Position numbers and translations under genes: made by a program
In this document: positions 7,616 to 63,628 of the stretch, in pieces
Layout: each line of letters starts with the position of its first letter
Position numbering within the stretch: position 1 is the first letter of the stretch
Notes under the pieces: generated by a model
What the model was told of the DNA's origin: nothing
Seen by the model: the letters and a program-made list of their open reading frames with translations, nothing else
Database searches by the model: none
NCBI GenBank assembly: GCA_015063135.1
Contig: SUTA01000009.1
Span: 1 to 64,000, forward strand
DNA from: Thermoplasmata archaeon
GTDB lineage: Archaea > Thermoplasmatota > Thermoplasmata > Methanomassiliicoccales > Methanomethylophilaceae
Length of the DNA: 64,000 nt
Reading direction: 5' to 3'

Positions 7616-8353
7616 TCAGCCGATGTAGGAAAGATCGTTGCGGCCGGCCGCGAGACTCTGGACCTCGTCGTTCAGCTGGTCGATCATCTGGACCGACTCG
7701 TCGAAGTCGGAGAGGTCCATCTCGATGCTCAGGATCCCCAGGACAGCCCTTACGACGCACCTGGCGCTCTTATGGTCAAGGATGGCCCCGGAGGTCTCCC
7801 CGATGATGCTTACGGCGTCTATGCCGTACGCCTGTGCCAGCGCGATGAACATGGCTGCCGCGCCGACGATGCCGCCCGCGGGCTCGCCCTCGTAGAACCC
7901 TATCCCGTGCTGCTCCAGCCCCTCCTTGAGGGATTTATCGCTCACGACCCCCAGCACCCTGGGGTCGGTGACGACCTCCCCGATGCCGTAGCCGCCGAGC
8001 GTGATCACGAGCTCCGGGTCGTAGCGGACGATGATGTCGAAGATCCTCTTGGACAGCTGGTACTGCCCCTGGGGGGTGGCTCCCTGGTACTCGCCCAGCA
8101 GGAAGACCACGTCGCGGTCGCCCACACGGCACCAGCGGAGCTCGTGCTCCGCGGGGACGGCCTCGCACCCCTCGCCGACGACGACCTGCGGCGGCAGCTC
8201 GTCCGACATCAGCGTCAGGAACGTCTCCGCCTCCAATTTGGAGGCCATGAAATCGGCGGCAATCTTCCCGACGTTCCCGACTCCGGGGAGGCCGGTTATG
8301 AATATGATGCGGTCCAGCTTGGGACGGGAGTACCAGGTGACGATATCGCTCAT
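7616..8353 (-). CDS. PAC2 / proteasome assembly chaperone 2 family protein
   Basis: A 245-residue protein with FITGLPGVGNVGKIAADF at the N-terminus and ITLGGYGIGEV and GGIVGAAAMF later, the pattern of the archaeal PAC2 (COG1938/DUF75) family related to eukaryotic proteasome assembly chaperone 2. It has no catalytic motif; its function in archaea is inferred from that relationship. It is the last gene of the L44e-S27e-eIF2alpha-nop10 operon, and its ATG lies inside the 3' end of nop10. The order aIF2alpha-nop10-PAC2 is conserved in Euryarchaeota. It ends in TGA. Confidence 0.85.
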   Translation of the reverse strand: MSDIVTWYSRPKLDRIIFITGLPGVGNVGKIAADFMASKLEAETFLTLMSDELPPQVVVGEGCEAVPAEHELRWCRVGDRDVVFLLGEYQGATPQGQYQLSKRIFDIIVRYDPELVITLGGYGIGEVVTDPRVLGVVSDKSLKEGLEQHGIGFYEGEPAGGIVGAAAMFIALAQAYGIDAVSIIGETSGAILDHKSARCVVRAVLGILSIEMDLSDFDESVQMIDQLNDEVQSLAAGRNDLSYIG

Positions 8354-8516
8354 CCTTCATCGACTCCAGCTTCGCCATGCGGCGGTACTTGCCCATGCGG
8401 TCCTCCGGGGAGTACCTCGGCGGAACGGGGCATGAAGTGGGGGCGCCGCAAGAAACGCACTTATCGGAGAGGGCGTACCTCCCGCATGCAGTGCAGCGCC
8501 TCATCTGCGAGCTCAT
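8346..8516 (-). CDS. nop10: Nop10, H/ACA RNP pseudouridine synthase subunit
   Basis: A 56-residue protein of the H/ACA guide RNP, which supports Cbf5 in rRNA pseudouridylation. MRRCTACGRY, KCVSCG and PPRYSPEDRMGKYRR reproduce the Nop10 zinc ribbon and C-terminal helix; family length is 55-60. The start ATG at 8516 overlaps the eIF2alpha frame end (ATGA). The frame meets CGA at 8346-8348, right at family length; with the standard code it would run to 7935 inside the PAC2 gene with no homology. It overlaps the PAC2 start by 8 bases. Its earlier arginines use AGG and CGC only. Confidence 0.85.
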
Positions 8517-8518
8517 GT

Positions 8519-9301
8519 TCGCTTGCTCTCGCGGGTCAGCGTGGCCTTCCCGCCGTTGGACACGAGGTCGTCTATGGCCGCCTTGGAGACCTTCTTCATG
8601 ATCTCCTCGGCCTCCTTGTACTCGGATGCCGTGACGACGACCCTGTACCTGGGGCAGCCCACGCAGGTGATGCCGACATCCTCGCCGTCCGCCGCGGCCA
8701 GCCCGGCCAGCAGCGCGTTCTTGACGACTTCCATCCCATCTGGGGCGGAGGACGTCATCTCGAGGATGCCCTCGATGTGGACGGTCGGCGGTGCGACGTT
8801 CTCCCTGGCGACCTCTATGAACGCGTCGGTCCAGGTCCCCGAGAACTCGGAGAGGAAGTCGTCGGTCTCGGCTACGGCGTACTCGAACGCCGCATAAAGT
8901 GTCTCGTAAGCTTCCAGCAGGTCGTTTCCGAACTCGTCGTAGGCCTTGTCCACGGAGATCCCCGCCCTCTCGGCGACGATCTCCATGAGCTTCTCTGCCT
9001 TCTTCTCGTTCTTCCACTGCTGGATCTTCTCCCTCTTCTGGTGCTCGTTGACCGATTTGAGGGAGAGGTCGATGTGGCCTTTAGAAGAATCGACGCCCAG
9101 AACCTTGCAGACGATCTTCTGGCCTTCCTTGACGTAATCCCTGATGTATTTAACCCAGCCAGAGGCTACATCCCTGACATGGACGAAACCCTCTTTGTCG
9201 TCGTACTCGTCGAGTGTGACGAACGCACCGAAGTTCTTCACGTTCTTGACGGTGCAGACGACGAGGTCGCCGTTCTCGGGGAAGCCTTTGGTCCTGGACA
9301 T
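8519..9301 (-). CDS. eif2a: Translation initiation factor aIF2 subunit alpha
   Basis: Brings initiator tRNA to the ribosome as part of the aIF2 heterotrimer. The 260-residue protein has an N-terminal S1 domain (DLVVCTVKNVKNFGAFVTLDEY; KVLGVDSSKGHIDLSLK), a helical middle part (QQWKNEKKAEKLMEIVAE) and a C-terminal alpha-beta domain with a CVGCPRYRVVV strand. The frame reads ESK then CGA (8519-8521), ACA, TGA (8513). I take CGA as the terminator; if it is read as Arg, two residues are added. The start overlaps the S27e stop as TGATG. Confidence 0.9.
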
Positions 9302-9468
9302 CAGCCGACGACCTCAAGGACTTCGCCCTTGATCTCCCCGATACCGCCCTTGGGGACGATGAGGGTGGCGCCGCAGACGTGACAGGTGACCTTGGTGGCG
9401 GCCTTTCTGAAAGCGATCTGCTCGTTTTCGCAGTCGGGGCATTTGATCTTGATGAAATCTCCGGTCAT
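9301..9468 (-). CDS. rps27e: Small ribosomal subunit protein eS27 (S27e)
   Basis: A 55-residue zinc-ribbon ribosomal protein: [16 protein letters not shown] and [10 protein letters not shown] carry the four cysteines. Length matches archaeal S27e. It lies between L44e (5 bases upstream) and aIF2alpha, the standard archaeal arrangement. It ends in TGA, overlapping the next ATG. Confidence 0.95.
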
Positions 9469-9473
9469 GTTGA

Positions 9474-9752
9474 TCACTCCGTGAGCTCGAACTTCTTCGC
9501 GCGGATGCAGGGGGAGATGTTGGCCTTCTTGCACTGGGTGCATCTGTACCTGAGGTTGATCCTCTTGGTGGGCTTCTCCCTTCCCTCGGGCTTGGGCCTG
9601 GGGAAACCTCCGTAACCGGCGGTGACCTTTCTGAATCTCCTCTGACCCCATTTGAGCTCGCTGGCTTTCTTCTTCTTGACCCTCTCCACTTCCTGCTCGG
9701 TGTGGGTCTGGCAGTAGGGGCAGTACCTCTTGATCGTTCTGGGCATTTTCAT
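9474..9752 (-). CDS. rpl44e: Large ribosomal subunit protein eL42 (L44e)
   Basis: A 92-residue ribosomal protein at the E site. It has [24 protein letters not shown] near the N-terminus and [14 protein letters not shown] near the C-terminus, giving the zinc-binding cysteines. It is the first gene of the operon, with a TATA box about 50 bases upstream. It ends in TGA. Confidence 0.95.
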
Positions 9753-9798
9753 GTTTAATCACCCAAGTGAATGGATGGGTTTCCCCTAAAAAGCAGGT

Positions 9799-9808
9799 CA
9801 TATAAAAA
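9799..9808 (-). promoter_or_regulatory. TATA box of the L44e-S27e-aIF2alpha-nop10-PAC2 operon
   Basis: On the minus strand the element reads TTTTTATA; it lies about 50 bases before the L44e ATG, giving a leader of roughly 20-25 bases. The rest of the 9753-9845 gap shows no gene. Confidence 0.5.
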
Positions 9809-9845
9809 GGTTCTACATGACCAGCGGAGGATGGCAGTATCTATC

Positions 9846-10553: not shown

Positions 10554-10800
10554 CCTTCCAGCTCCATGGGGCTATGGGCTCATCAAGTCAAATAACTAAC
10601 GGGGCCGTACTTCTGAATCATGCTACGACCGACCCGGATCTGCGAAAGATGCTGATGATTCTACGATTCACGTTTTGATATAGGTAAAGCCAGCATTAAG
10701 CGGGGAAGCATATTGCATGGGTCACCGGGGCGGAAGTCCAGCACGTGACGACTTCCCAGCCTCGCGAGCCGGGCTCCGTGTCCTCGAAGGAGGTGATCTC

Positions 10801-10893
10801 ATCGCCGACAAAGGAAAGGACCAGGGCCACACGCTCGACAAGCTAACCCTGGTCCTCGAAGTGATCCGGCTCTTGGTCGAATTGCTTCGCTGA
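10801..10893 (+). CDS. Putative 30-residue peptide behind a strong ribosome binding site
   Basis: AAGGAGGTGAT at 10787-10797 is an unusually good Shine-Dalgarno sequence. Seven bases after GGAGG comes ATC (10801), followed by an open frame ending in TGA at 10891-10893. The peptide is charged at the N-terminus (ADKGKDQGHTLDK) and leucine/valine-rich at the C-terminus (LTLVLEVIRLLVELL), a short amphipathic helix. A UUCG hairpin follows directly. An upstream in-frame ATG at 10717 would give 58 residues but passes a CGA codon at 10765-10767, which looks like a terminator in this genome. ATC would be a rare start, or a mutated ATG. I recognise no family. Confidence 0.4.
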   Translation: MADKGKDQGHTLDKLTLVLEVIRLLVELLR

Positions 10894-10903
10894 AAACCAC
10901 TTA

Positions 10904-10921: not shown

Positions 10922-11023
10922 GCTGCAGTTCGCGATTATGATTGTCGGATGACGGATTTAACCGTTGCTGAGCATACGGGCCCTCGGGCACCCAATAAAT
11001 ACGGGTCGTCCGTTCCCATTGGC

Positions 11024-11704
11024 ATGAAGCTCGCGTCCCTCTACTCCGGCGGGAAGGATTCCACTTTCTCGATGTACCTGGCGGAGCAGATGGGGCACGA
11101 GGTGCCGATCATGGTCAACATCATGCCCGAGGATGCGGCATCGTGGATCTTCCACACCCCGAACCTAGGGGTGGTCCCCGCCATGGCAGAGGCCATGGGG
11201 AAGACCCTGGTGACCGCTCCCAGCACCGGGACCGAGGAAGGCGACATGGAGGGGCTCAGGAGGGCCCTCGAGGGCCTGGACGTCGACGGCGTCGTCACCG
11301 GCGCGGTATGGTCCGACTACCAGTGGGACAGGATGAACCTCGTCTGCGGTGACCTGGGCCTGAAGGTCGTCTCCCCCATGTGGAGGAAGGACCAGGACAT
11401 GCTCATGGAGTCCATGATCGACTCCGGGATCGTCGCGGTCGTCGTAGGATGCTTCGCCGAAGGCTTCGACGAATCGTGGCTCGGCAGGAGGCTGGACCTC
11501 GAGGCCCTGGACGAGCTCAGGGCCCTGAGGAAGAGGTACGGGATCAGCGTGATGGGCGAGGGCGGGGAGTACGAATCCATGACCCTCGACTCGCCGATGC
11601 ACAGATACCCGCTCAGGATCGCGTCCTCCAAGAAGGTCTGGAGGAGGAACGAGGGGCTGCTGAAGGTGGGTGCCCTCGAGCCCTGCGCAGGGCCTTCGGA
11701 ACGA
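11024..11704 (+). CDS. dph6: Diphthine--ammonia ligase family ATP pyrophosphatase (Dph6-like)
   Basis: Amidates diphthine on elongation factor 2, the last step of diphthamide synthesis. [20 protein letters not shown] contains the PP-loop SGGKDS, and [16 protein letters not shown] is the conserved C-terminal half of the family. The start MKLASL is chosen by homology; the frame is open upstream. It is 226 residues ending at CGA (11702-11704); with the standard code it would run to 11758 inside the opposing copper ATPase. It converges on copA and overlaps it by 29 bases. No other CGA is in frame. Confidence 0.85.
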
Positions 11705-15114: not shown

Positions 15115-18100
15115 TCGCGCCCTCTCTATGGCCTCTACTATCCTGGCGATCTCCTTGTCGGGGTTCTTCCACATGCCGGGGGTCCACACCCTGTGGATCC
15201 TCCAGCCGCGGGACTCCAGGTACTTCTGGCGGTGGTAGTCCCTCTCCCTGGTGGACGAGGACATCTCGTACAGCCTGCTGTCGCACTCTATGCCCAGGAT
15301 GTACCTGTCGCCCTGCTTCACCGCCAGGTCGATGCTGTAGCCGCCGATTCCGACGTTGCGCTCGACGGTGTAGCCCTTGCGGATGAGGATCGCGTTGACC
15401 CTGTCGGCCACCGTGGACGGCGCCATGTCCCTGGGGTCCTCCCACCTGGCGTCCCCGAAGGACTGCAGGATGGAGTCCGCCAGCTCCCTGTTGCCGTCGC
15501 TGATGGCGTCGGCGTACTGGAGGTACTTCTTCAGGATCTTCGGGCCGTCGTTCTTGACGTCCTCCACCTGGAGGTCCTCGGGCTCGAAGGACCTGACGAT
15601 CATGATCTTCCTCTTGGCCCTAGAGATGGCGACGTTGAGCCTGTTCTCCCCGCCGCGGTTGTTCAGCCACCCGAACCTCTGCATGAGCTTGCCCTCGGAG
15701 TTCCTCGCGTAGCCGATGGAGAAGATGATGACATCTCTCTCGTCGCCCTGGACGGACTCGATGTTCTTGATGAACAGTCCCGTGTCCTCGCCGTTGTCGA
15801 ACCTGTTTGTCTCGTCGTTGACGATCTTGCCGAACGAGGGGTCCCTGGCGCACTCGTCGTCCAGGACATCGTTGATCAGGTCCCTCTGGGACGCGTTGAA
15901 GGTGATGACGCCGATGGTCTCGTTCTCCTTCCTGGTGGCGAAGAACTCCCTCAGCAGGGAGACCACCTTGTCAGCCTCGGCGCGGTTGGACTTGTCCTCC
16001 CAGAGGCCGTCCACCCTGAACACCTCTATGGGCGGCCTGGGCGGCTGGATGACGTTGGGGGAGACGTACAGCCTCCCGCCGTAGAACGCGTAGTTGCTGA
16101 ATGCTATGAGCTCCTCGTACTTCGACCTGTAATGGAAGTTGAGCAGGATCGAGTCGTACCTGGCCCTGGCCAGGTCCAGAAGGGACTCCTCCTCCAGGGC
16201 CGCCCCGATCTCGTCGTCGAGGTCCTCCTCGTCGGACTCGAACTCCATCCTGCCGGTCCCGAGGCTGGAGGGCCTCAGCTGCTTGTGGTCGCCGGCGACG
16301 ACGACCTTCTTGGCGCGGAATATGGAGGGTATCCCCTTCTCGACGTACATCTGCGATGCCTCGTCGAAGATCAGCAGGTCGAAGATCCCCATCTCCATGG
16401 GAAGGATCTCTGACACGACCTCGGGGGTCAGCAGCCATACGCGGACGCCCTTGAACAGCTCGTAGCCGTAGCGGGCGATGAACTTGTTGAGGTTCCATTT
16501 CCTCTTGGACTCCACGATCCTGTTGATGTCGCCGCGCCTCTTGGACTCGGTGATGTACTTCAGGTTCTCCTGGAAGACCTCCTCGACCTTGTCCTTGGAT
16601 AGGTTCCTCTTCTCCACGATCTTCCTGTCCATGTCGGCGACGATGCTGTCGAAGTCCCATATCTGCTGCATTATGTCCTTGTGGGACGCGTCGAACCTCT
16701 GGAGGTGGTCGTTCAGGATGTACTTGTAGATGCTGTCGTTGCTGGTGCGGTCGTCCATGTTGGTCTTCGCGGAGACGCCCAGGATGTCCGCTCCGTACAT
16801 CCTCTCGTTGCCCGAGAGCTTGCTGTAGACGGTGGACACCGTGGAGAAGGCCTCGTAGCTGTCCAGGCCCTCGCAGATCCTCCCGGGGTCGTCCATCAGC
16901 GTGCGGAGCGTGTGCTCGTTGTAGTTGGAGAAGTACTTGTCCGCCATGAGGGTGGCCTCGCGGGTCACCTTGCCCTTGGAGAACAACCTGCTGACGAAGC
17001 CCTTGGAGTTGAACTCGATCATCTGCCTCTCCAGGTCCATCAGGTCGGCCTTCATCTCGCCGATGCTGAACTCGGACAGGTCCGGCTTCATCTGCGTCAT
17101 CCAGGGGTTCTCAGCGGAGAGCCTGGAGTACTCCTTGAAGTTCCTCATGGCCACGGCGTCGCCGAACTTCCTGTGGAGCTCCTTGACCTCGGGGTACTTG
17201 GCGGACAGCAGGGGCTGCTCGACCGTCTCCTTTATCATCCTGTACTCCTCGAACTGCCTCTTGTCGCCCAGGTCCAGCCAGCGCTCCATGGAGTACAGCT
17301 TGTACGGGGCGATGCCGAAGTCGCCCGGGCTGTACATGACGTCGGCGATGTTCTTCAGCATGGAGACGTCGCCGTCTATGCTCTCCGATATGGACTCCAG
17401 GTCCGTCCCGGTCCTGGGGACGGAGGTCTTCAGCATGCGCTCCAGCTGCCTGTAGAAGATGTCCTTGTTGGCCACGTCGTCGATCAGCAGGCAGTACTTC
17501 GACAGGGTCCCGAGGCGGGAGTAGACCACGTCCAGCGCGGTCTTCTTCTCGGACACCATGATCACGGTCTTGCCCTTCAGGACGGCAGAGGCTATCAGTC
17601 CGGTGATGACCTGGGACTTGCCGGTGCCGGGGGGCCCCTGGACCACGAGCTCGTCCTCCCTGTCCACGGCGGTCAGGATGTTCTCCTGGGCGCTGTTGAG
17701 CTGGTTCAGGTAGACGAGGTCCCTCTCGGATGCCTCCATGCCCTTGCTCCTGATCTCCTCCTCGGAGAGCGGGGCGGGCAGGTCCGAGAGGAAGTCGGAC
17801 CTGTTGAGGTCGGCCACCAGGTCGTTGAGGATCCCGTTGATCTCCCTGCTGGCCAGCATGGTGTCGAAGTCCCTCTGGATCGAGCTGGAGTACGTGGGGT
17901 ACTTGCCCAGGACCACGTTCTGGACGATCTCCATGTCCCCGGCGAGGTACTGGGGGAACTCGCCCACCCTGTAGTCCACGAACTGCGATGGGTATCCGCC
18001 GGCGTCGTTCAGGACGATGCCGCTGTCCCTGTAGAACGCGATGAGTTCGTCCAGGAACGTCGCCTCGTCGTAATCCTCGATGATGTTGCTCGGCAGGGGC

Positions 18101-18846
18101 GCGTTCCTGCCGGTGGATTTGATGTAGCCCAAGATCAGCGTGTTGTTGTACATCGCGTCCCTGGACGGGTCGGGCACCAGCGTCATGGTGCGGCTGTCCC
18201 TCTCCAGCAGGACCGGGAACAGGGCCAACGGCGCCCTGATGTCGAAATCGTTGTTGGGCATCTTGCCCTGAACGAACGGGTAGCCGATGTACAGGTCGTA
18301 CTGTCCCTTGTCCCTCAGCTCCCTGTTGACCTCGCGGTATATCTCGTTGAGCTGCTTGTACACGCGGGCCTCGGCGGGGCTCTTGGCCGAGTCGCAGAGC
18401 TGCAGGGACCTGGTCCTGCCGAACACGAGGTCCAGGGGGTCCTGGCCCTCCACGGACATGAGGTCGAACGTGTTCTTCTTGGACATCCTGCCCTGGAACA
18501 GCAGGCGGTTCCCCCTGCTGATGTTGATGAGCTTCTTCTCGAGCTCCCTGAGCGTCTTCGCGGCGTCGGCGTCTATGTTCCCGCCGTTGGCGGCCGTGAT
18601 GGCGTACTTCCTGGTGACCCTCAGGAAGTCCTCGCCGTACTGCTCCACGAACCTCTGCCCCACGCCCACGATGGCGGAGAAGTCCTCCACCTTGGTCGGC
18701 ACGCGCTGGGCCATCTCCCTGAGCGCCTCGTCGGAGCAGACGTTCGGCACCCTGCCATTAGACATCCTGTACTCCTCGCGCAGCCGCTCCCTCAGGTCGT
18801 ACAGCTCGCTGTAGAGGTCATCTTCCAATCCCATGGCCGGCCCCAT
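15115..18846 (-). CDS. Large superfamily 1 helicase with HRDC, DUF4011-type core and DUF559 nuclease-like end
   Basis: A 1243-residue protein. Residues about 35-85 form an HRDC-like helical domain (EALREMAQRVPTKVEDFSAI). The helicase core has VVQGPPGTGKSQVITGL (Walker A, about residue 405), LLIFDEASQMYVEKG, GDHKQLRPS and the motif VI region NVAISRAKRKIMIVRS. The last 100 residues (ERNVGIGGYSIDLAV, GIECDSRLYEMSS, RGWRIHRVWT) match the DUF559/Vsr-like nuclease fold seen at the end of DNA2/NAM7-type helicases. A role in DNA repair or defence is inference. About 100 arginine codons contain no CGA until CGA at 15115-15117, exactly after the nuclease domain; the standard code would add 203 nonsense residues. 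An alternative start is ATG 18834. Confidence 0.85.
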
Positions 18847-18896: not shown

Positions 18897-19286
18897 ATGA
18901 TGCAGCCCGGCATGAAGGCGGAGAAGAGGATTACGGTAGGCCCTGAGGACACTGCCGAGATGGTCGGCAGCGGCACGCTGCCCGTGCTGGCGACCCCGAG
19001 GATGATCGCCCTGATCGAGGCGACGGCATCCGCGGCTGCGGCCCCCGGCCTGGAGCCTGGCACATCCACCGTCGGCACCCTCGTGAACGTCGCCCACACG
19101 TCCGCCACCCCCGTCGGGATGGAGGTCGTCTGCACGGCCGAGCTGGTCGAGGTAGACAGGCGCCGCCTGGTCTTCCAGGTCGAGGTCCGCGACGCCTCCG
19201 GGCCCGTGGGTTCCGGCACCCACGAGAGGTTCGTCGTTGACGATGCGAAGTTCATGGCCAAGGCGGAGTCCAAGCTCGGAGCCTGA
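18897..19286 (+). CDS. Thioesterase-like hotdog protein (fluoroacetyl-CoA thioesterase type)
   Basis: A 129-residue hotdog-fold protein with LVNVAHTSATPVGMEVVCTAELVEVDRRRLVFQVE and GSGTHERFVVD, the FlK-type thioesterase pattern. It probably hydrolyses a small acyl-CoA; the substrate is unknown. The Met at residue 2 or 6 could also be the start. It ends in TGA at 19284-19286, overlapping the 3' end of the opposing permease by 11 bases. Confidence 0.75.
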   Translation: MMQPGMKAEKRITVGPEDTAEMVGSGTLPVLATPRMIALIEATASAAAAPGLEPGTSTVGTLVNVAHTSATPVGMEVVCTAELVEVDRRRLVFQVEVRDASGPVGSGTHERFVVDDAKFMAKAESKLGA

Positions 19287-22281: not shown

Positions 22282-23256
22282 TCGCTGCCTGTCCCTTATG
22301 GAGCGGAAGAAGTCCATAGCCCTGGACATGCACATCGAGAGCATCGCCTCAGGGTCCCCTATGCCGGATATCCCTGCGGCTCCGCTGTGACCTCCGCCAT
22401 CAGACCCCGTCTCGGAACCGAGCCCCTTCATGAGCTCTCCGAGGTGGAGGCCCTTGGCGACGATGTCCTGGGTGGCCCTGCTGGAGACCCTGTAGGTTTC
22501 CCCGCGCTGGGATGCCACGAAGGCGACGTCCGCGCCGGAATCCACCATCGCTCTCGCGACGGATGCCTCGTAGTTCCCGCAGACAGCGGTGGCGACGATG
22601 CACTCGCCGACCCTGTCGAACTTCAGATTCCCGAGCCCCTTCATGACCGCGACCCTCTCCGAGATCGTCATGGGGTTGTCCGAGATGGCGTTGACCTCCT
22701 CCATGCAGAAGCCGTGGAGCTCCATGAGGTCCGCGAAGGCCCTCAGGGTCCTGGGGTCTGCGAACCTCAGGTGGGCGGTATCCGACATGATGCCGCAGAG
22801 CAGCGCCAGGGCGGCGTCCCTGTCGATCTCGGCGCCCGCATGCTCCATGACGTCCTTGACGACCTCGCAGCAGGAGGTCCTGCCCTCCTGGCAGTAGAAT
22901 ACGTCCACATCCCACTTGCCGGTGGGCATGTGGTGGTCGATGACGACGGCCGAGCGGGGGATTTCGAGATCGGCCTCCAGCTGCTCAGGGGACGACGTGT
23001 CCACGATGAAGATGGAATCGTAGGACGAGAGGTCGCACCCCTCGATGACCGGGATCCCCATATTGGCGACCACGTTCTTCGTGAGGCGGTCCATCCCGTT
23101 GGGCGCGTAGATATCGGCCTTGAAGCCCCTGGCCAGCGCATAGGCCGACCCCATGGCGTCCATATCGGCGTTCGAATGGACAAGAATGACCTTCTTCCCT
23201 GAGGCCAGCTTCGCGCATACCGCGTCCAACATACCGTTCGCGATAGTTTCAGACAA
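22282..23256 (-). CDS. DHH/DHHA1 family phosphoesterase
   Basis: A 324-residue protein with HSNADMDAMGSA (DHH-type metal motif), SIFIVDTSSPEQL, AVVIDHHMP (the DHH motif) and a C-terminal GGGHSGAAG motif of the DHHA1 domain. It resembles NrnA-like oligoribonuclease/pAp phosphatases and archaeal RecJ-like proteins; the exact substrate is open. It ends RSIRDRQ then CGA (22282-22284), one base from the tyrS stop. Under the standard code it would continue 13 codons antisense to tyrS. Confidence 0.85.
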
Positions 23257-26086: not shown

Positions 26087-26455
26087 TCGCTCCTCGTCCT
26101 CGTTGGAGGGCGCGGAGGCACCGCCCATGGCGGCGCTGATGGTCTGCTGGAGCACGGTGTACTTCTCCTTGAGGGAGGTCTCCTGGCGCTCCATGCTGCT
26201 GATCCTGACCTCCATCATCTCGATGGAGTCGTCGAGCTCCGCCTTCAGGGCATCGACGTCGTCGACCTTGATCAGCAGGGATCCGGCCGTCCTGTAGACG
26301 GTGCCGGTGCTCTTCTCGAGCTCCTCGCGGGTCCTGACGAGCTCCCTCCTCTGGGCGTCCATCTGGACCTTCTGGGTGGTGATGGCCTGCAGCTGCTGCT
26401 GGACCTGCTGGAACTGAGCGATCTGGTTCTGGAGCTGGGGGCTGATTCCGTTCAT
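26087..26455 (-). CDS. pfdB: Prefoldin subunit beta
   Basis: Chaperone subunit that hands unfolded proteins to the thermosome. The 122-residue protein is two coiled-coil helices (LQNQIAQFQQVQQQLQAITTQK and DDSIEMMEVRISSMERQE) joined by the beta-hairpin region. Length is exactly that of archaeal prefoldin beta when it ends at CGA (26087-26089, after NEDEE). The standard code would add 29 residues running through the promoter of the ABC operon. It is the last gene of the psmA-to-pcc1 operon. Confidence 0.93.
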
Positions 26456-38409: not shown

Positions 38410-39210
38410 TCGGGAGTACTTCGCCCTGCGCTTGGGGTCGTCCTTGAACCTGGAGTAATCCTTCCCGTCGACCATCAGGTCAGCCCTCCTGCCCAGGTCT
38501 ATCCCGTCCAGGAGATAGATGCGGGCATCGTCCAGGTCGAGCCATCCGCTGTTCAGGATCGGCCCCAGGAGGTCCTCGTCTATGACGTTGACGGGGGACC
38601 CTCCCAGCATCCTGTTGAACGCTGGAACCACCAGGAACGATTCCGGGAGCCTGGCGTATCTGTCGGAGCTCCCGACGCTGAACCTGCCGCGGAACCAGCA
38701 CGGCTCCGTGGTGCGGCGCCCGACGCCGTCCTTGAACATGACGGCGGGATGGTTGTGGGCCATCACGAGGGTCCCACAGGCCATGACCTCGTCCGACGGC
38801 CACGTATGGCCGTGGACGAATCCCACGCCGTCCCTCACCAGCCCCGTCGCGGGCCTTATCCTGACCCTCCCGGGCAGAAACTCCTCTATCTGGGTATCGT
38901 GGTTCCCGCGGACCACGGAGACCTCCGTGAAGCGCTCCAGGAGCGCTTCGAAGAAGTCCGGGATCTCCGCGAACTCCTGCTTAGTGGAACCAGGGACGGA
39001 GTCCTTCACGTCCCCTATGACGATCAGCTTGTCTATGTCCTCGTCTGCGGACGAGATTATTGAATCCAGCATGTCGCTGGTGCGCGAGACCAGGTGGAAG
39101 CCCTTGGCCCTCAGATGCGATTCTACGCCTATGTGCAGGTCACCTATGACCAGGCTCCTGCCGGCCCTGAGGGCCGGTACGCCGTGGACGGGCTGCAGGT
39201 CCATGCTCAC
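38410..39210 (-). CDS. Metallophosphoesterase (archaeal MJ0037-like)
   Basis: A 266-residue calcineurin-like phosphoesterase: VIGDLHIGVE (first metal motif), LIVIGDVKDS, VVRGNHDTQIEEF, FVHGHTWP and LVMAHNHPAV give the binuclear metal ligands. The family often neighbours DNA repair helicase genes in archaea; the substrate is unknown. It ends RRAKYS then CGA (38410-38412). It overlaps the nnr stop by four bases (ATGA) at its start. Confidence 0.82.
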
Positions 39211-46828: not shown

Positions 46829-47455
46829 ATGAAATCCACAATCGTTCTGCTCGGGCCCCCTGGCTCCGGCAAAGGCACCCAGGGAGAAAAGCTGTCCGAC
46901 GAGTTCGGGTACGTCAGGCTCTCCACCGGCGACATGCTCCGCGAGGCCGTGAGGAACGGCACCGAGCTGGGCAAGAAGGCCAAGTCCTACATGGATGCCG
47001 GCGGGCTGGTCCCCAACGACATCATCATCGGCCTCATGAAGGAGAAGATCGCCGCCTGCAACGGCAAGGTCCTCCTGGACGGGTTCCCCCGCACCGTGGA
47101 GCAGGCCGACGCCCTGGCCGAGCAGCTCGATGTCGATCTGGCACTGAACCTGGACGTCGCCGACGAGGAGCTCATCTCCAGGCTCACCAACAGGCGCTCC
47201 TGCCCCGACTGCAACGCCGTGTACCACCTGGTCACCAAGAAGCCCAAGAAGGACGGCGTCTGCGACAAGTGCGGCGCCCAGCTCTACCAGAGGGACGACG
47301 ACAAGGAAGCGACCGTCAAGAACAGGCTGGAGGTCTACCGCAAGAACACCATGCCCCTCATCGACTACTACCAGAAGAAGGGCACCCTCGTGACAATCAT
47401 GGGCGTCGGGTCCATCGACGAGATCTACGAGAAGGTCAGGAAGGCCGTCCAGCGA
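46829..47455 (+). CDS. adk: Adenylate kinase
   Basis: AMP + ATP to 2 ADP; 208 residues. LLGPPGSGKGTQGEKL (P-loop), DGFPRTVEQADAL, and a lid domain with four cysteines (SCPDCNAVY, CDKCGAQL) that binds zinc. The family length is reached at CGA (47453-47455, after VRKAVQ), 8 bases before a perfect 10-base hairpin. The standard code would translate through that hairpin and toward tRNA-Gln (to 47584), which is implausible. Confidence 0.93.
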
Positions 47456-53223: not shown

Positions 53224-53721
53224 TCGGAGCCTCAGCTTGGGGTCCCTCAGGTCCAGCAGCGCCACCTGGCGCCTGTCCATGAAGAATCCCAGCTTCTTGT
53301 GCAGCATGATGGACGGGGCGTTGTCCTCCTGGATCATGCTGTGGACCACGGTGGCCCCCTGCTCCCTGCCGATGCGCGCGCACTCCCTCAGGAGCTTGAA
53401 CCCGATGGCGTTGCGGCGCATGTAGGGGTGGACGCCCATGTTCTCGATCCAGACGACGTTGGCCTCGTCGAAGACGTGGTGGAGCATCTGGGCGAAGATG
53501 AATCCGACGATCTCGCCGTCCTCCTCCGCCACCAGCGACAGCCCGCTGTCGAGGTACGCCTTGAAATGGTTCCTGCTGCTCGCGCCCAGGTTGTCCTTCC
53601 AGTCCTGCGGGAGGTCCTCCCACTTGTTCTCGAGGGTCTCGGCGAAGTACTCGCGGATGCAGGAGAGCTCCAGCTCCCTGACGGCCTCGACGTCCCTGAG
53701 GCGGACCGGGCGTATCTCCAT
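53224..53721 (-). CDS. GNAT family N-acetyltransferase (RimI-like)
   Basis: A 165-residue acetyltransferase. MEIRPVRLRDVEAVRELELSC, WIENMGVHPYMRRNAIGFKLL (acetyl-CoA loop variant) and LHKKLGFFMDRRQVALLDLRDP are the standard motifs of protein N-terminal or ribosomal acetyltransferases. It starts at 53721, two bases after the argS CGA. It ends PKLRL at CGA (53224-53226); the standard code would extend to 53179. Confidence 0.8.
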
Positions 53722-53723
53722 GA

Positions 53724-55484
53724 TCGCATCTCCTCGGGAGCGCCCATGCCCAGGCAGTCCAGGGTGTCGGCCAGGACGGTCCTGGCGCACTCCACCAGGG
53801 TCAGCCTCGCGTCCCTCTTGTCGGCCTCACCGAGCACGGAGACGTCGGCGTAGAACTTGTTGAACGCGGCGGCGACCTCGTGGGCGTACTCCGGGAGCAT
53901 GTGGACCTTCCTCATGTCGCCGGCGGCGGCGAGGACCTCGCCGTACCTGGACAGGGACTTGACGAGCGCGAGCTCGCTGGGGTGGGTGATCTTGGATGCG
54001 TCGGTGCACCTTTTGAAATCGCCGGCCTTCCTCATGACGCTGCAGGCCCTCGCGTGGGCGTACTGCAGGTACGGGCCGGAGTTGCCGTCGAAGCTGAGCG
54101 CGTCCTCCCACTTGAAGACGAACTGCTTCTCGGGCTGGACGCTGACGATGTTGTACCTGACCGCTCCGATGCCGACGATGCGGGCGATCTCCCTCATCCT
54201 CTCCTCGGGCATGTCGGAGCGGCGCTTCTTGATCTCCTGGTAGGCCCTCTCGACGGACTCGTCGATCAGGTCGTCCAGGTAGACGACGACCCCTTTCCTG
54301 GTGGACATCTTGCCCTCCGGCAGGGAGACGAACGCGTAGAACAGGGGCTCGGGCTGCTTGTCGGAACCCAGGATCTCGAGGACGGAGCAGAGCTGCTTGG
54401 ACCCGAGCTTCTGGTCTTCCCCAAGGACGTCGATGACCCTGTCCGCCCTGGTGAACTTGTCCAGGTGGTAGGCGATGTCCCTGGTGGTGTACAGGGTGGT
54501 CCCGTCGGACCTGGTGAAGGTGAACTTGGTGTTCTTGCCCTTGATTCCGAAGTCGGCGAGGTCGACGAACCAGGCGCCGTCCTCGGTCTCCCCGGCGTAC
54601 TTGGACTTCTTCAGGTCGGCCACGACCTTCTGGGCGGAGCCGTCGGCGATGTAGCCGGACTCCCAGGTGTACCTGTCGAGGGTGACGTTGATGGCGCCGA
54701 GGGTCTCCCTCAGGCCGCCGAGCATGATCTCGGCGGTGTGCCTCACGTCGGCGATGACGTTGGCATCCCCGGCCTCGAAGCCGCGGAGCATCTCGGAGAT
54801 CTCCCTCTGGACCTCTGGCTCGGCCTCCATCCTCTTGTTGGCCACGCGGTAGTTGGCCACGAGGCGGTGGTCGGTCTTGTCCCTCTCCTTCTCGTTCTGG
54901 CCGATGGTGCGGGCGTGCTCCTCCCTCTCCTCCTCGGCCTCCGCGTCGGAGACGTTGTTGACCCCCCAGGTCAGCACGACGACCTGCTTGCCCACATCGT
55001 TGACGTAGTACTCGGTGGTGACTTCGTGCCCGCACTTCTTCAGGCACCTGGCGAGTGTGTCGCCGATGATGGGGTTCCTGGCGCGGCCCACGTGGATGGG
55101 GCCGGTGGGGTTGGTCGACGTGTGCTCGACGTTGACCCTCTGCCCGGTCTTGGGATGGGACCCGTAGTCCCTCCCCTTGGAGACGATCTCCTCCATCACC
55201 GCCCCCACCATCGCGGAGGGGTCGATGTAGAAGTTGACGTAACCGTTGACGGCCTCGACGCGGGCGATGAGCCCGGCGGGCTGGATCCTGGATGCTATGG
55301 CGGAGGCGTACTCCATGGGGTTCTGCTTCGCCATCTTGGCCACGGGGAACAGCGCCATGGCGGCGTCCGCCCCCGACTTGCCGCTGACGTCCACGGGCAG
55401 CTTGGAGAGGTCGAAGCCGGTCTCGCCGACCGCGCCCTCCACGGCCCTGCGGACCTGAACAGTGAAATCGTCCATGACGGACAT
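53724..55484 (-). CDS. argS: Arginyl-tRNA synthetase
   Basis: Charges tRNA-Arg; 586 residues. NVEHTSTNPTGPIHVGRARNPIIGD contains the HIGH-type motif; GKMSTRKG is the KMSKS variant; the DALR-type anticodon domain (YAHARACSVMRK) ends in LGMGAPEEM, the usual archaeal ArgRS C-terminus (LGI-APERM-like). Directly after this terminal Met comes CGA (53724-53726). About 60 internal arginines contain no CGA. The start ATG overlaps the aRF1 terminator as CGATG. Under the standard code the ORF runs 112 residues into the GNAT gene. Confidence 0.95.
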
Positions 55485-56713
55485 CGGCTCACCTTGTACC
55501 TGAGTATGGCGGCGATCCCACCGAACGCCCTCATGAGCATGTCGCCCTCCTCGGAGTCCGGGGAGATGATCTCCACCTTTGTGTTGTACTCGTCCGCCTT
55601 CATGAAGAAGTCGTCGATGAGGTCCTCGTCCTTGATGACCTGCGCGTTGGCCTTGCACTCGGGGCACTGGATCCTCTCGTCCGCGTCGGGGACGGTCAGG
55701 TCGTGGGTGTGGCCGGAGGGGCACTGCACGGTGACCCTGCGCTTGTCCAGGGCCTCGGACAGCAGGAGCATGTCCACGGCGCCCATGTCCAGGGCGTTCC
55801 TGACCATGGCCTCGCCGTAGCAGGACAAGCCGCCGTCGGCCTTCCTGATCTCCCTGAAGAACCTCTGCATGTACTCCTTCTCCTCGGTCAGGCGCACGTC
55901 GACGATGATGCCCTTGGCGTTGTCGACCAGCTCCCTGAGGCCGGACTCGTCGGTGTAGCCCGTGTCCACGAGGGGGGAGATGACCTTCTTCCTGAGCTCG
56001 TGGTGCAGGTACTCCTCCTTGACGAAGAAGTCCTTGGTGGCTCCGGGTCCTCCGACGAGGATGCCGATGAGCTCGGGGCGGTTGAGGAAGACCTCCGTGG
56101 CGTTGTCGGCGACCTTCTTGAAGAACTCGTGGGCGGCAATCTCGATCAGCCTCTCGAAACGGACGGACGACTGACCTCCCTGGTGGTGCTTGGAGGGGAC
56201 CAGGGAGTCGAAGTGCTTCAGCACCTGTATCCTGCTGCCGCTGAGGATGCCGAGGGTGGCCTCGGACCTGTCGATGGTGATCAGGCCGTAGCTCCTCTTG
56301 TCCAGGAGCATGGCGTCGAGGGGATCGGTGAAGAAGGTGGAGTCGCACCTGTACATGAACGCGGTGATGGCCTCGGGGGGGTTGATGACGTACTGGACCA
56401 TCTTGGTCTGGTCGCCTGCGCGGGGGACCTCGCCGCAGAAGATGACCACGCCGTTCGCCGGGGGCGCCTTGTAGGTCTTGAGGCGGGCGGCGATGGAGTC
56501 GATGGCGCTCTGGACGTGGTTCATGGTCGTCTTCGACTTGATGTTGGATGCCTGAGACTGCTCGTTCCTGAGGTAGGCCATGACCTCGGAGATCTGCTTG
56601 TTCTCCGGGACGTAGACCGAGATCAGCTCGGTCCCGCGCCCCCTGTAGGATGTGATCTCCTGCATCGCCTTCTTGAAGTCGTATTTCGCCCTGTCCGCAT
56701 CGTTCTCTGCCAT
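55484..56713 (-). CDS. prf1: Peptide chain release factor aRF1
   Basis: Recognises stop codons and triggers peptide release; 409 residues. Domain 1 has GRGTELISVYVP, QASNIKSKTT (NIKS) and YRCDSTF (YxCxxxF); domain 2 has the catalytic KHHQGGQSSVRFERL (GGQ); domain 3 has a CPSGH, CPECK zinc region and FGGIAAILRY. All decoding motifs look ordinary, so no obvious change explains CGA recognition. Its own terminator is CGA (55484-55486) after RYKVS, overlapping the argS ATG. With the standard code it would run to 55295. Divergent from pyrH. Confidence 0.95.
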
Positions 56714-56822: not shown

Positions 56823-57506
56823 ATGACGGACAGCGTGGTTGTTTCGATAGGCGGCTCTATTCTCATTCCCGGCGATAACGATGCGGAGTACATCGGCAAG
56901 CTGGCCAAGATGCTCAAGGAGGTCTCGGAGGAGGTCTCGGTGTCAGTGGTCGTGGGAGGGGGGAAGACCGCCAGGTACTACGCGTCCAACGCCGCGGAGC
57001 TCGGCGGCTCCATGTTCGACCAGGACATCCTTGGGATCGAGGCCACCCGCCTGAACGCCCAGCTGCTGTCCCTGGCGCTCGGGGACATGCCCAAGAGGGT
57101 GCCCGAGACCGTGGAGCAGTTCGTGGAGGCCCGCAGGACGAGGACGATCCCCGTCATGGGCGGGACCGAGCCCGGTCACACCACGGATGCCGTCTCAGCG
57201 ATGATAGCCAAGGCGATCAAGGCCGACAGGGTGGTCAACGCCACCTCCGTGGACGCCGTCTACACCGACGACCCCAGGAAGAACCCCGGCGCGAAGAGGA
57301 TCGAGAGGATGACCATCGACGAGCTCGGGGACATCGTCTACAAGGAGCACGGAGCGTCCAAATCCAGCGTCTTCGACCCCATGGGGGTCGGGATCGCGAA
57401 GGAGAACAGGATCGATATCCTGATGGTGGACGGCAGGAACCTCGAGGAGCTCAGGAAGGCCATCCTGGGACAGCCCTTCAGCGGGACCTTCGTCGACTCT
57501 CACCGA
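56823..57506 (+). CDS. pyrH: Uridylate kinase, archaeal type
   Basis: UMP to UDP; 227 residues of the amino-acid-kinase fold. VSIGGSILIPGDN, VVVGGGKTARYYAS, IPVMGGTEPGHTTDAVSAM and NATSVDAVYTDDPRKNPGAKR match archaeal PyrH. It ends GTFVDSH at CGA (57504-57506). It converges on dtd2, which also ends at CGA, with a 14-base overlap. Under the standard code it would run 47 residues antisense to dtd2. Confidence 0.93.
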
Positions 57507-58436: not shown

Positions 58437-59858
58437 ATGCCCGAACTGACGAAGAACGAGATGGCGCTCCTATACCTGGGCGGCTTCAGCAACTCGGACC
58501 CGGTGCTGTCGGCCAGCGTCCCCGTTGGGATGACACAGGACGGCATAGCCGGGGCCCTGGGGATCAGCCGCGGGTACGCCGCGCTGATAACCAGCAGGAT
58601 GATGGCGCTGGGGCTCGTGGAGGGCATCCAGAAGCACATAACCGGCAGCAAGGGCAGGAGGCTGGCCTACTTCCTCACCCCCAAGGGGATGGAGGAGGCC
58701 TCCCGGATAAGGAAGGGCGCGGAATCCAACGGCGATGACGTCACCGGCATGTTCCTCAGGGGCGGCGTGGACGGATGCTCCGCGGAGGAGCTGTCCGCGC
58801 TGGACCCCGACGACAGGGACGTCCTGGGATGGCTGTGCCTGATGGAATCAGATGTCATGAGGACCGAGATCCCCTCCCGCGCCGCGCCCATCCTGAGGTT
58901 CGGGAGGCGCGGCGAGGTCCGGCTGATGCCCGAGACCAGGGAGGCCATGCTGGCGACCGCCTCTGAGGAGGACCTGGTGCGCTGGCACTGCATTGCGGCC
59001 GAATGGTTCGCCGACCGCAGGCCCCAGGACCCGGAGAGGCTCATCCACCTGGCTCTCGGCAGGAGGTCCATCGAGGCCTCCGGGCTGGTGATGGAGCAGA
59101 GGTGCCGGATCCTGGACTCCCCGGACATCGTCCACCTGAGGGCGCTGAAGGAGGTCTGCAGGGTGTCGAAGGACCCGCGCGTCCATGAGACCGCGGTGAT
59201 GCTGGCACTGTCCCTCCGCGACATGGCCTCGGCCCGCGAGGTCCTCTCCGGGGCGGCCTGCCTCAAAGGCGACGGGCTCAAGGCGATGAGGGCGGAGCTA
59301 GCGATAATGGAGGGGGACTGCGCCGAGGGGCTAAGATGCGCGGTGGACTCCTACAGCGGGGACCCCGAGAGCTCGCTCAGGCTGGCCCGCGGCTACCTGG
59401 TGTCGAGGATGCCCGAGAGCGCCCTGCCCTTCATCCGCCACGCCGTGAGGGCGATGTTCAGGAGCGGGTGCCTTTTCGGGCTGGACGAGGCCTACAGGCT
59501 GGAATCGCTGGCGCTGATGAGGATCGGCGACTGCGGGAGGGCCCTGGACAGCCTGGACCTGGCCATGGAGGCCTGCACGGACGGCATCCGCGCGGAATGC
59601 ATCGAGCGGATGCGCACGGAGCTCGCCAGGATCGCGGCCTCGGAGGACGGGGTTCGCCCTGAGGGTGTCCAGATCGGATATGTACAGATCCCTGATGTCC
59701 TTTATGTCCCATTTGAGCATGGCCAGCCTCTCGAAGCCGAATCCCCATGCCAGGACCGGCACGTCGATGCCGAAGGGGGCCACGACCTCGGGCCTGAATA
59801 TGCCCGCCCCTCCGAGCTCCATCCACTTGCCGTGGAAGAAGACCTCGAGCTCCAGCGA
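58437..59858 (+). CDS. Winged-helix regulator with helical (TPR-like) C-terminus; 3' end uncertain
   Basis: Residues 1-90 form a winged helix (LTKNEMALLYLGGF, GISRGYAALITSRMMALGLVEGI, YFLTPKGMEEASRI). The rest is helical, rich in Ala/Leu/Arg pairs, TPR-like (EVCRVSKDPRVHETAVMLALSLRDMASARE). Function: likely transcription regulator. Coding character seems to fade near 59640, where the opposing pheS ends, but no TGA, TAA or CGA occurs there in frame; the first in-frame CGA is at 59856-59858 and the standard stop at 61145. A TATA box (GTTATAAACGG near 58408) precedes the start. The real end is probably near 59640-59660, perhaps after a frameshift. Confidence 0.6.
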
Positions 59859-61157: not shown

Positions 61158-61161
61158 GGGA

Positions 61162-62283: not shown

Positions 62284-62311
62284 GTGCTCTACCTCGTTGC
62301 GGGTAGGCGCG

Positions 62312-62323
62312 ATATATTATAAA
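62312..62323 (-). promoter_or_regulatory. TATA box of the trpS-pheS operon
   Basis: TTTATAATATAT on the minus strand, about 30 bases before the trpS ATG. A separate TAATATA element at about 62358-62364 lies 25-30 bases before the divergent CBS gene. Confidence 0.5.
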
Positions 62324-62387
62324 CCTTAGCGGGCGCGACGGCGCGCATATAGGTAAGTAATATATCGCCCAAGTGGATGCATCGGTC

Positions 62388-62870
62388 ATGACACTCAGGG
62401 TTAGGGATCTCATGACCACGGACGTGGTCACTCTGCAGCCGACGGACACCATCAAGACCGCGGCCATCAAGTTCGCGGTCGACAACATCTCCGGTGCTCC
62501 GGTCGTCGACAACCGCAACCACCTTCTCGGCATAGTGAGCCAGAACGACATCCTGAGGACCCTCCTGAAGTACCAGGACCTGCTCGACAAGGACAACCCC
62601 GAGGGGCTGTCAATCCTGAAGCACTCCCTGGACAGCGGCGAGGGCGGCGACAGGATCGTCAAGGCCGTCGACGAGATATCCGACATGGAGATCTCCACGA
62701 TCATGACCTACTCCACCCTGACGACCTCCGCGGACGCCCCCATCCTGGACGTCCTGAGGGCCATGATCACCATGGACGTCAACAGGGTCCCCGTGATCGA
62801 GAAGGGCGTCCTCATCGGAATCATCTCCAGGGGCGACATCACCTTCGCGCTCTACAAGAGAAAGGCCTGA
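62388..62870 (+). CDS. CBS domain pair protein
   Basis: A 160-residue protein of two CBS domains: RDLMTTDVVTLQPTDTIKTAAIKFAVDN with LLGIVSQNDIL, and ISTIMTYSTLTTSADAPILDVLRAMI with LIGIISRGDI. Such pairs sense adenine nucleotides or SAM in methanogens; the ligand here is unknown. It precedes the MBL gene by 2 bases. It ends in TGA. Confidence 0.88.
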   Translation: MTLRVRDLMTTDVVTLQPTDTIKTAAIKFAVDNISGAPVVDNRNHLLGIVSQNDILRTLLKYQDLLDKDNPEGLSILKHSLDSGEGGDRIVKAVDEISDMEISTIMTYSTLTTSADAPILDVLRAMITMDVNRVPVIEKGVLIGIISRGDITFALYKRKA

Positions 62871-62872
62871 CC

Positions 62873-63628
62873 ATGCTGGAAGCCCATGTGCTCGCCAGCG
62901 GCAGCGATGGCAACTGCTGCGTGATAGAGTGCGACGGCGAGGCGGTGATGATCGACTGCGGCCTCAGCTGCAGGAGGATCATGTCGCTGATGGACCAGGC
63001 CGGCGTGGACTCGTCGATGATAAAGGCCATACTCGTAACCCATGAGCACGGCGACCACATCAGCGGGGCCCAGGCCACCGCCAGGAAGCTGGACGTCCCG
63101 ATAATGACCAACCTGGCCACCTTCGAGGCCAGCGGGTTCTCCAATGTGAAGTACGTGCCGGTGGACCCGTCGAAGTCCTTCGAGGTCGGGTCCATGAAGG
63201 TCACCCCCCTGCCGACGTCCCACGACGCCGTGGACCCCCACTGCTACTTCACCGAGACCGACCAGGGCAACGTCGTCATCGCCACCGACACGGGGAAGAT
63301 GAACTTCCAGATCGCCCATGCCATATCCCTATCCGACATAGCCATCGTGGAGTCCAACTACGACATACAGATGCTCCGCGACGGCCCCTACCCCCTGATA
63401 CTCCAGAAGAGGATACGCGGCGAGTACGGCCACATGTCCAACGTGGACTGCGCCAGGACCCTGAGGGACCACATGAAGCCCGGGGCGACCGTGTTCCTGG
63501 CGCATCTTTCCAAGAACAACAACCTGCCCGACGTCGCGCGCCAGACGGTCTCCGACATCTCCGGCATTGACCGCCGGAAGATAGACTGCATGGAGTTCCA
63601 GTGCGACATCAGGACGCTGAAGAAGCGA
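62873..63628 (+). CDS. Metallo-beta-lactamase fold hydrolase (YycJ/WalJ-like)
   Basis: A 251-residue hydrolase: HVLASGSDGNCCVIE, ILVTHEHGDHISG (HxHxDH), VIATDTGKMNFQI and IVESNYDIQML match the YycJ-type MBL family, putative phosphodiesterases. It ends IRTLKK at CGA (63626-63628), 11 bases from the opposing GINS stop. With the standard code it would run 37 residues antisense to GINS. Confidence 0.87.

What the first reader, a model, noticed from the sequence alone, without database searches (positions are those of the whole stretch)
8346..63628. CGA behaves as a translation terminator: 26 gene ends, no internal use
Seen: in-frame CGA occurs at the expected C-terminus of nop10, aIF2alpha, dph6, copA, the C26 protein, the 1243-residue helicase, the TctA-like permease, the DHH protein, the ABC-2 permease, pfdB, pop5, nitroreductase, two metallophosphoesterases, two GNATs, Fic, the tyrosine phosphatase, adk, an 81-residue membrane protein, argS, prf1, pyrH, dtd2, pheS and the MBL gene. 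I found no in-frame CGA inside any conserved gene body, although arginine is frequent (AGG, CGC, AGA, CGT, CGG). Read as Arg, these genes gain non-homologous tails through hairpins, promoters and neighbours. Family knowledge: argS normally ends in an APE-M-type terminus, adk, pfdB and nop10 have tight lengths; all fit CGA as the end. The other genes use TGA (38) or TAA (3). I know of no described archaeal code in which CGA is a stop. Inference: CGA lost its Arg meaning and became a stop codon by exchange with TGA.
Basis: partly seen in the sequence, partly recalled or inferred. Interest (0 to 1): 0.98.

Follow-up and report, generated by a model that had tools for sequence, protein, structure and literature searches.

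The report
Arginine codon CGA used as stop
In an archaeon that likely belongs to a gut methanogen family, the codon CGA, which normally means arginine, is absent from the conserved gene bodies examined and stands where related genes have their stop codon, so it likely works as an extra stop signal, a kind of code change reported before in mitochondria and plastids.

Summary
In 317 homology-supported genes of this genome (44% of the assembly read), CGA occurs 0 times in 83,659 core codons. At the exact position aligned to a relative's stop, 43 of 214 genes have CGA and 101 have TGA or TAA; every other sense codon occurs there at most 5 times. The organism likely belongs to Methanomethylophilaceae. 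tRNA-Arg(TCG) was not found here but was found in 27 of 31 genomes of the genus. CGA also stands at some gene ends of other species (12 of 469). The main new point is the release-factor gene prf1. In 26 of 26 other species of the genus where the site was read, prf1 carries an in-frame CGA at a conserved arginine, with conserved flanking bases; here the site is CGC. Among the genes examined in the genus, only prf1 and one HTH-regulator family showed an internal CGA. I infer that aRF1 reads CGA as a stop, that most species control aRF1 by read-through of their own CGA, and that this lineage lost both site and tRNA. aRF1 has Met where eRF1 has Arg68, a residue whose loss is computed to relax first-base discrimination (PMC5681627). 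Termination at CGA is not shown biochemically.

The parts
53724..53726 (-). CGA at the end of argS (53724-55484); standard stop only 112 codons later
   Evidence: Homologs in 35 partner genomes; the three partners printed end in TGA at this position; TIGR00456 ends at residue 586 of 586
55484..55486 (-). CGA at the end of prf1 (aRF1)
   Evidence: The three partners printed end in TGA one codon earlier; TIGR03676 to residue 400 of 401
56483..56485 (-). prf1 codon for the conserved Arg after NIKS: CGC here, CGA in 26 of 26 other species of the genus read
56522..56524 (-). aRF1 Met at the position of human eRF1 Arg68
   Evidence: alignment to 3j5y; Met in 26 of 26 genus sequences (this one included) and 7 of 7 sister sequences
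56534..56545 (-). NIKS motif of aRF1
59640..59642 (-). CGA at the end of pheS; standard stop 103 codons later
   Evidence: the three partners printed end in TGA at this position; PRK04172 to residue 504 of 505
47453..47455 (+). CGA at the end of adk; standard stop 43 codons later
   Evidence: 13 partner genomes, the three printed TGA; NF001380 to 207 of 208
57504..57506 (+). CGA at the end of pyrH
   Evidence: 15 partner genomes; of three printed two have TGA and G009 has CGA; TIGR02076 to 281 of 284
53224..53226 (-). CGA at the end of a GNAT acetyltransferase gene
   Evidence: 35 partner genomes; of three printed two have TGA and G021 has CGA
57493..57495 (-). CGA at the end of dtd2, TGA 5 codons later
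   Evidence: the NCBIfam model stops 14 residues short
22282..22284 (-). CGA at the end of the DHH protein
   Evidence: one partner
26087..26089 (-). CGA at the end of prefoldin beta
   Evidence: one partner; the NCBIfam model stops 11 residues short
63626..63628 (+). CGA at the end of the metallo-beta-lactamase-fold gene
   Evidence: one partner
8519..8521 (-). CGA at the end of aIF2alpha, TGA two codons later
   Evidence: NF003064 to residue 259 of 260
11702..11704 (+). CGA at the end of dph6 (13 codons past the aligned end)
   Evidence: weaker than the others
11676..11678 (-). CGA at the end of the copper-type P-ATPase (26 codons past the aligned end)
   Evidence: weaker
15115..15117 (-). 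CGA at the end of the 1243-residue helicase
   Evidence: Pfam MTES_1575 ends at residue 1240 of 1243, profile end 96 of 96
19276..19278 (-). CGA at the end of the TctA-like permease
   Evidence: TctA to residue 410 of 423, profile 421 of 423
38410..38412 (-). CGA at the end of a metallophosphoesterase (18 codons past the aligned end)
   Evidence: weaker

Best explanation
In this archaeon CGA is absent from 83,659 conserved codons and stands at the aligned stop position of many genes, so it likely is a stop codon, predicted to be read by the release factor aRF1. Shown: CGA avoidance inside the genes examined; its place at gene ends next to TGA; no tRNA-Arg(TCG) found; Met in place of Arg68 in aRF1; in 26 of 26 other species of the genus read, one in-frame CGA inside prf1 with conserved flanking bases. 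Inferred: aRF1 of this genus has a loosened NIKS loop, so it accepts C as well as U at the first base of a -GA codon, and UGA and CGA both terminate. Inferred: in most species the surviving tRNA-Arg(TCG) lets some ribosomes read through the CGA in prf1, so scarce aRF1 raises its own synthesis and abundant aRF1 stops it. Inferred: the lineage of this genome changed that codon to CGC and lost the tRNA, which freed CGA to become a common stop (43 of 144 aligned ends that carry TGA, TAA or CGA).
For: Ends: (CGA 43 observed, 2.5 expected at the downstream rate; pooled other species 12 observed, 1.9 expected, p = 3e-7). Bodies: 0 of 83,659 codons in G000; 21 internal CGA in 952 genes of 21 genomes, 18 of them the prf1 codon, one per genome. 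prf1 codon CGA in 26 of 26 species other than G000 (19, 7; 4 genomes not covered), and CGC, CGT or AGG in 7 of 7 sister loci covered. Context: preceding codon ends in T in 25 of 25, following codon CTN in 26 of 26; C after CGA is rare at G000 gene ends (4 of 67 against 27 of 159 after TGA, p = 0.03). tRNA-Arg(TCG) found in 27 of 31 genomes of the genus, not in G000. Its place in the one genome compared, G014, is present on one contig in G000 but rearranged and without it. G000 lies inside the genus in a 9-gene tree and a basal position is rejected (AU p = 0.02), so loss of the prf1 CGA is the simpler history. eRF1 Arg68Ala is computed to drop the penalty for a first-base C from about 6 to 1-2 kcal/mol (PMC5681627, passages seen).
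Against: No protein or ribosome data. Met68 also occurs in sister genera, and Asn or Gln68 in one outgroup family, where CGA is still found inside genes, so loss of Arg68 is not sufficient. If the first base were simply ignored, CAG and CAA should be avoided, but CAG is common (1836 in G000). The assembly is 87% complete; Tyr and Pro-GGG tRNAs were also not typed and Trp only as an intron-bearing candidate, and I ran the intron mode of ARAGORN only on fetched stretches, so part of the tRNA absence could be incompleteness. 58 of 308 scorable G000 genes run on without a near CGA. An HTH-regulator gene has an internal CGA in four other species. The exact place of G000 inside the genus is unresolved (support 0.35).
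Confidence: 0.85

Rival explanations
1. CGA is merely unassigned: with no tRNA to read it, ribosomes stall there and aPelota-type rescue frees them, so CGA ends are tolerated rather than read by aRF1.
For: tRNA-Arg(TCG) not found in G000; a second eRF1_1-domain gene besides prf1, taken for pelota, is encoded.
Against: CGA ends occur in housekeeping genes and make up 43 of 144 aligned ends with TGA, TAA or CGA. CGA gene ends and CGA avoidance also occur in species that keep the tRNA. A conserved CGA inside the release-factor gene itself points to aRF1.
Confidence: 0.08
2. CGA still means Arg but is a very rare codon; the proteins have real C-terminal extensions and the prf1 codon is a slow codon that tunes translation.
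For: CGG is also rare (79 of 83,659 in G000); tRNA-Arg(TCG) survives in most species of the genus.
Against: Partners end in a standard stop at the CGA position in 203 of 216 alignments; run-ons of up to 418 codons can pass into neighbouring genes, e.g. argS through the GNAT gene 53227-53721; profile ends coincide with CGA.
Confidence: 0.03
3. The mRNA is edited from C to U, so CGA at gene ends becomes UGA.
For: Most partner alignments have TGA at the same place (179 of 216).
Against: It would need many separate editing sites across the genome, and it does not explain the absence of CGA inside genes or the prf1 site.
Confidence: 0.02
4. Termination at CGA is real, but the conserved prf1 CGA has another role, for example a pause that helps folding of the codon-reading domain.
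For: The site lies 20 residues after the N of NIKS; no regulation was measured; another gene also holds an internal CGA in four species.
Against: It is the one internal CGA kept in every species read, and it lies in the gene whose product would read it.
Confidence: 0.2

Closest known systems
Sense-to-stop reassignments in organelles (UCA in Sphaeropleales mitochondria, PMC6821328; UUA and UCA in peDinoflagellate plastids, PMC12574857; passages seen)
   Same: Sense codon vanishes from gene interiors, appears at homologous ends, and goes with changes in the release factor
   Different: Here a cellular archaeal genome, an arginine codon, an archaeal/eukaryal-type factor (aRF1), and a first-base change; PMC12574857 calls its plastid case the first outside mitochondria
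CGA/CGG reassignments in bacteria (Absconditabacteria and others, PMC8629427; passages seen)
   Same: Arginine CGN codons lose their meaning
   Different: There they become Trp or Gln in low-GC genomes; here CGA becomes a stop in a genome of about 60% GC (window). Codetta by design cannot detect sense-to-stop changes (PMC9825746, passages seen)
Autoregulation of bacterial RF2 (prfB) by an in-frame UGA (recalled, no call)
   Same: A codon read by the factor lies inside its own gene
   Different: prfB uses a frameshift; the prf1 frame here is unbroken, so plain read-through by tRNA-Arg(TCG) would suffice
Pyrrolysine decoding of UAG in Methanomassiliicoccales (recalled); PylS found in this genus
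   Same: Same group also has an unusual use of a stop codon
   Different: That is stop-to-sense for UAG; this is sense-to-stop for CGA

Membership tests
Sense-to-stop codon reassignment | Codon absent from conserved gene interiors | tested here: met
   0 of 83,659 core codons in G000
Sense-to-stop codon reassignment | Codon found at homologous C-terminal ends in place of a stop | tested here: met
   43 of 214 exact positions; next most frequent sense codon 5; p = 1e-41
Sense-to-stop codon reassignment | Cognate tRNA lost | tested here: inconclusive
   Not found in G000, ancestral slot without it, but assembly 87% complete; kept in 27 of 31 genomes of the genus
Sense-to-stop codon reassignment | Release factor altered in its codon-reading domain | tested here: met
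   Met at eRF1 position 68, Gln at 56, Ala at 59 in 26 of 26 genus sequences; Met68 is shared with sister genera, so the causal change is not pinned down
Sense-to-stop codon reassignment | Peptide release at the codon | not testable with these tools
   needs biochemistry or mass spectrometry
Release-factor autoregulation of the prfB type | Conserved codon read by the factor inside its own gene | tested here: met
   CGA in prf1 in 26 of 26 other species of the genus read; not in G000. That the factor reads it is inferred
Release-factor autoregulation of the prfB type | Programmed +1 frameshift at that codon | tested here: not met
   prf1 stays in one frame across the CGA
Release-factor autoregulation of the prfB type | Factor level changes the outcome | not testable with these tools
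   needs a reporter assay
CGN reassignment to another amino acid (PMC8629427 type) | Codon found inside genes at conserved positions of another residue | tested here: not met
   no internal CGA in G000; aligned CGA columns were judged to lie outside gene bodies

The most novel reading that the evidence does not exclude
A whole genus of gut archaea uses a cellular genetic code in which CGA is a stop codon with a licensed exception: the release factor's own gene, where the last surviving meaning of CGA as arginine, and the tRNA kept mainly to read it, serve to control how much release factor is made. The lineage studied here took the final step, losing both the site and the tRNA.
Probability: 0.6. 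Interest if true: 0.97.

Novelty: new variant of a known kind. Interest (0 to 1): 0.95.

Why it matters
In the listings I saw (two searches listed 20 of 37 and 20 of 658 papers) there was no report of a sense codon turned into a stop in a bacterial, archaeal or nuclear genome, and PMC12574857 states that its plastid case was the first outside mitochondria. The genus would show the stages of such a change side by side: an avoided codon, a codon with two meanings, and a codon that is purely a stop. It would also give an archaeal release factor whose first-base specificity changed in nature, with a substitution at the residue that simulations single out. Gene catalogues for these methanogens would need correction, because standard translation adds false tails.

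Tried and rejected
Ordinary explanations and dead ends. (1) Chance or rare-codon bias: rejected by the exact-position test. Of 40 homologous ORFs dropped by the filter and not overlapping kept genes, 10 hold 21 CGA, none of the 4 in G000; all 10 have clearly negative coding scores. (3) tRNA absence in several species: my first pattern missed the tRNA of the G003/G007/G009 clade because its loop has C, not T, at position 33. (4) G000 as the earliest branch, which would make the prf1 CGA a later gain: rejected at AU p = 0.02; the 2-gene tree alone was weak. (5) Three internal CGA beyond prf1: G014 L264 lies before the likely start codon; G007 and G009 share one site in an HTH-regulator gene, also seen in G003, and G005 has a CGA elsewhere in its homolog. 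(6) Viral contigs with a related prf1: none. (7) Dating the change with sister loci: L095 had 0 CGA in 3,439 codons, but the codon filter trained on the genus dropped many genes of the other sisters, so the origin is not dated; an earlier pass showed internal CGA in some sisters.
Full report
What was checked. The window is contig C35 of a 1.86 Mb assembly, 87.5% complete. The closest named argS relatives are metagenome genomes labelled Methanomethylophilaceae, Methanomassiliicoccaceae or Thermoplasmata, several from rumen or gut. I read 823,724 bases of this genome (window plus 40 stretches), 360,000 of G007, 420,000 of G014, 3.8 to 40 kb from 18 other species of the genus, and 400,000 of an outgroup, G036 (totals).

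Gene bodies. All frames free of TAA, TAG and TGA were compared by BLASTP across genomes. A codon-usage filter in which CGA had no weight removed shadow frames, leaving 952 genes in 21 genomes of the genus. CGA occurs 0 times in the 83,659 core codons of 317 G000 genes, against CGG 79, CGC 1225, CGT 135, AGA 169, AGG 3128. Besides the three stops it is the only codon with a count of zero; the next lowest is TTA with 16. In all 21 genomes together there are 21 internal CGA; 18 are one codon of prf1, two are one site of an HTH-regulator gene in G007 and G009, and one lies before the likely start of its gene. The filter left out some homologs of the HTH gene: G003 has the same CGA and G005 one elsewhere in the gene.

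Gene ends. In G000, 183 genes end at a standard stop at the aligned end, 67 have CGA there with the standard stop more than 10 codons beyond the aligned end, 58 run on without a near CGA and 9 are cut by a stretch end. The 58 are not explained one by one; the same class appears in G007 (22 of 182) and G014 (38 of 168), so it is at least partly a limit of the method. At the 67 CGA ends, 216 partner alignments show TGA 179, TAA 17, TAG 7, CGA 8 and other 5; the standard stop lies a median of 32 codons further. In the stricter test, one best partner per gene and the exact aligned position, G000 has TGA 93, TAA 8, TAG 0, CGA 43, past own stop 16, other codons 54 of 214. The CGA rate 4 to 20 codons downstream is 2.6%, so 2.5 would be expected among 97 positions without a standard stop (p = 1e-41). 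Four CGA also lie 4 to 20 codons before the aligned stop, of 3,638 codons. NCBIfam models for argS, aRF1, pheS, adk and aIF2alpha run to within one residue of the CGA.

Other species of the genus. Pooled over 20 other genomes, 12 of 469 exact positions are CGA, 1.9 expected (p = 3e-7). Clear cases with 11 or more partner genomes are in G001 (two), G008, G011 and G021. So CGA ends genes outside this genome too, but rarely.

The release-factor gene. prf1 is in the window (55484 to about 56702, minus strand). In every other species of the genus where the site was read, 26 of 26, the conserved Arg 20 residues after the N of NIKS is written CGA; G002, G004, G017 and G022 were not covered. Fourteen of 14 named close loci agree, while 7 of 7 sister loci covered have CGC, CGT or AGG; the named loci may be the same genomes as some unnamed handles. 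The codon before ends in T in 25 of 25 and the codon after is CTN in 26 of 26. G000 has GCC CGC CTC. Against near-total avoidance elsewhere, this conservation is most likely selected. Autoregulation of aRF1 by read-through is the reading I prefer; no regulation was measured. C directly after CGA is rare at G000 ends (4 of 67, against 27 of 159 after TGA, p = 0.03), in line with C being a leaky context.

tRNAs. G000 has tRNA-Arg TCT, CCT, GCG and CCG among 43 tRNA genes, no TCG. TCG was found in 27 of 31 genomes of the genus, by ARAGORN for 14 and by similarity for 13; not in G000, G013, G016, G017, of which the last three are 87, 88 and 66% complete. In a clade with G003, G007, G009, G019, G023 and G042 the anticodon loop has C where T33 is usual, which may weaken it (inference). 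In G014 the gene lies between two genes that I take, by eye, for a thermosome and a hypE-like gene; in G000 both lie on contig C25 with about 9.4 kb of other genes between them and no tRNA there. A 9-gene tree puts G000 inside the genus, its exact place unresolved (support 0.35), and a basal place is rejected (AU p = 0.02). The simplest history is that the prf1 CGA is ancestral to the genus and was lost with the tRNA in this lineage.

Mechanism. Alignment to solved eRF1 and aRF1 chains shows Met at the position of eRF1 Arg68, four residues after the S of NIKS. All 26 genus sequences (G000 included) and 7 sister sequences compared have Met; 10 of 14 outgroups have Arg and 4, of one family, Asn or Gln. 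PMC5681627 (passages seen) computed that CGA is penalised by about 6 kcal/mol by wild-type eRF1, and that Arg68Ala drops the penalty for a first-base C to 1-2 kcal/mol. The genus further has Gln at 56 and Ala at 59, shared among the 7 sisters only with L095. Met68 alone is not enough: sisters with Met68 and outgroups with Asn or Gln68 still show CGA inside genes. CAG is common in G000, so the relaxed first base must be tied to G at the second; TGA is the dominant stop (159 of 183), which fits a factor tuned to -GA codons. All 31 genomes match the pyrrolysyl-tRNA synthetase model and 27 exceed its cut-off (weak matches also occur in control genomes), so UAG is likely pyrrolysine here, a possible reason for the shift to UGA (inference).

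What is known. Papers seen as passages: PMC8629427, PMC5681627, PMC6821328, PMC12574857, PMC9825746. Sense-to-stop changes are described there for mitochondria and plastids; PMC12574857 calls its plastid case the first outside mitochondria. Codetta cannot detect such changes (PMC9825746), so its screen of 250,000 genomes could not have reported this one. Searches listed no paper whose title or abstract start reports CGA as a stop in archaea; not all matching papers were listed, and subscription journals and preprints are mostly not held.

Verdict. That CGA marks gene ends in this genome is very well supported by sequence; that aRF1 reads it is likely; that prf1 regulates itself through CGA in the rest of the genus is a specific, testable inference.

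Noticed in passing
L110 (G007), L112 (G009), L108 (G003), L109 (G005): HTH-regulator gene, e.g. L110 minus-strand ORF of 445 codons, codon 165: A second gene with in-frame CGA: one aligned position in G003, G007 and G009, another position in G005; could be a second read-through gene.
   Followed up: partly
L187 5884-5960, L188 10622-10698, L189 585-659, L334, L335, L337: tRNA-Arg(TCG) in one clade of the genus has C instead of T at position 33 of the anticodon loop.
   Followed up: partly
G001 (L107) and G006 (L333) prf1: NIKS motif of aRF1 reads NIRS in these two genomes; G001 also has several CGA gene ends.
   Followed up: no
G000:C18:72418-73092 and the genus: Pyrrolysyl-tRNA synthetase is present across the genus; TAG was at 0 of 214 exact stop positions in G000 (6 of 183 in the laxer count), so TAG is probably mainly a sense codon here.
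   Followed up: partly
L095 (sister lineage): 0 CGA and 0 CGG in 3,439 codons, with CGC at the prf1 site; may belong to the same code change.
   Followed up: partly
L059 (G000:C7:41813-41917): tRNA with an intron that ARAGORN labels Ser(CGA); the loop reads CTCATAG, so it looks like a Met tRNA.
   Followed up: no
window 15115-18846: 1243-residue protein with HRDC, SF1-type helicase and MTES_1575 nuclease-like domains, ending in CGA.
   Followed up: no
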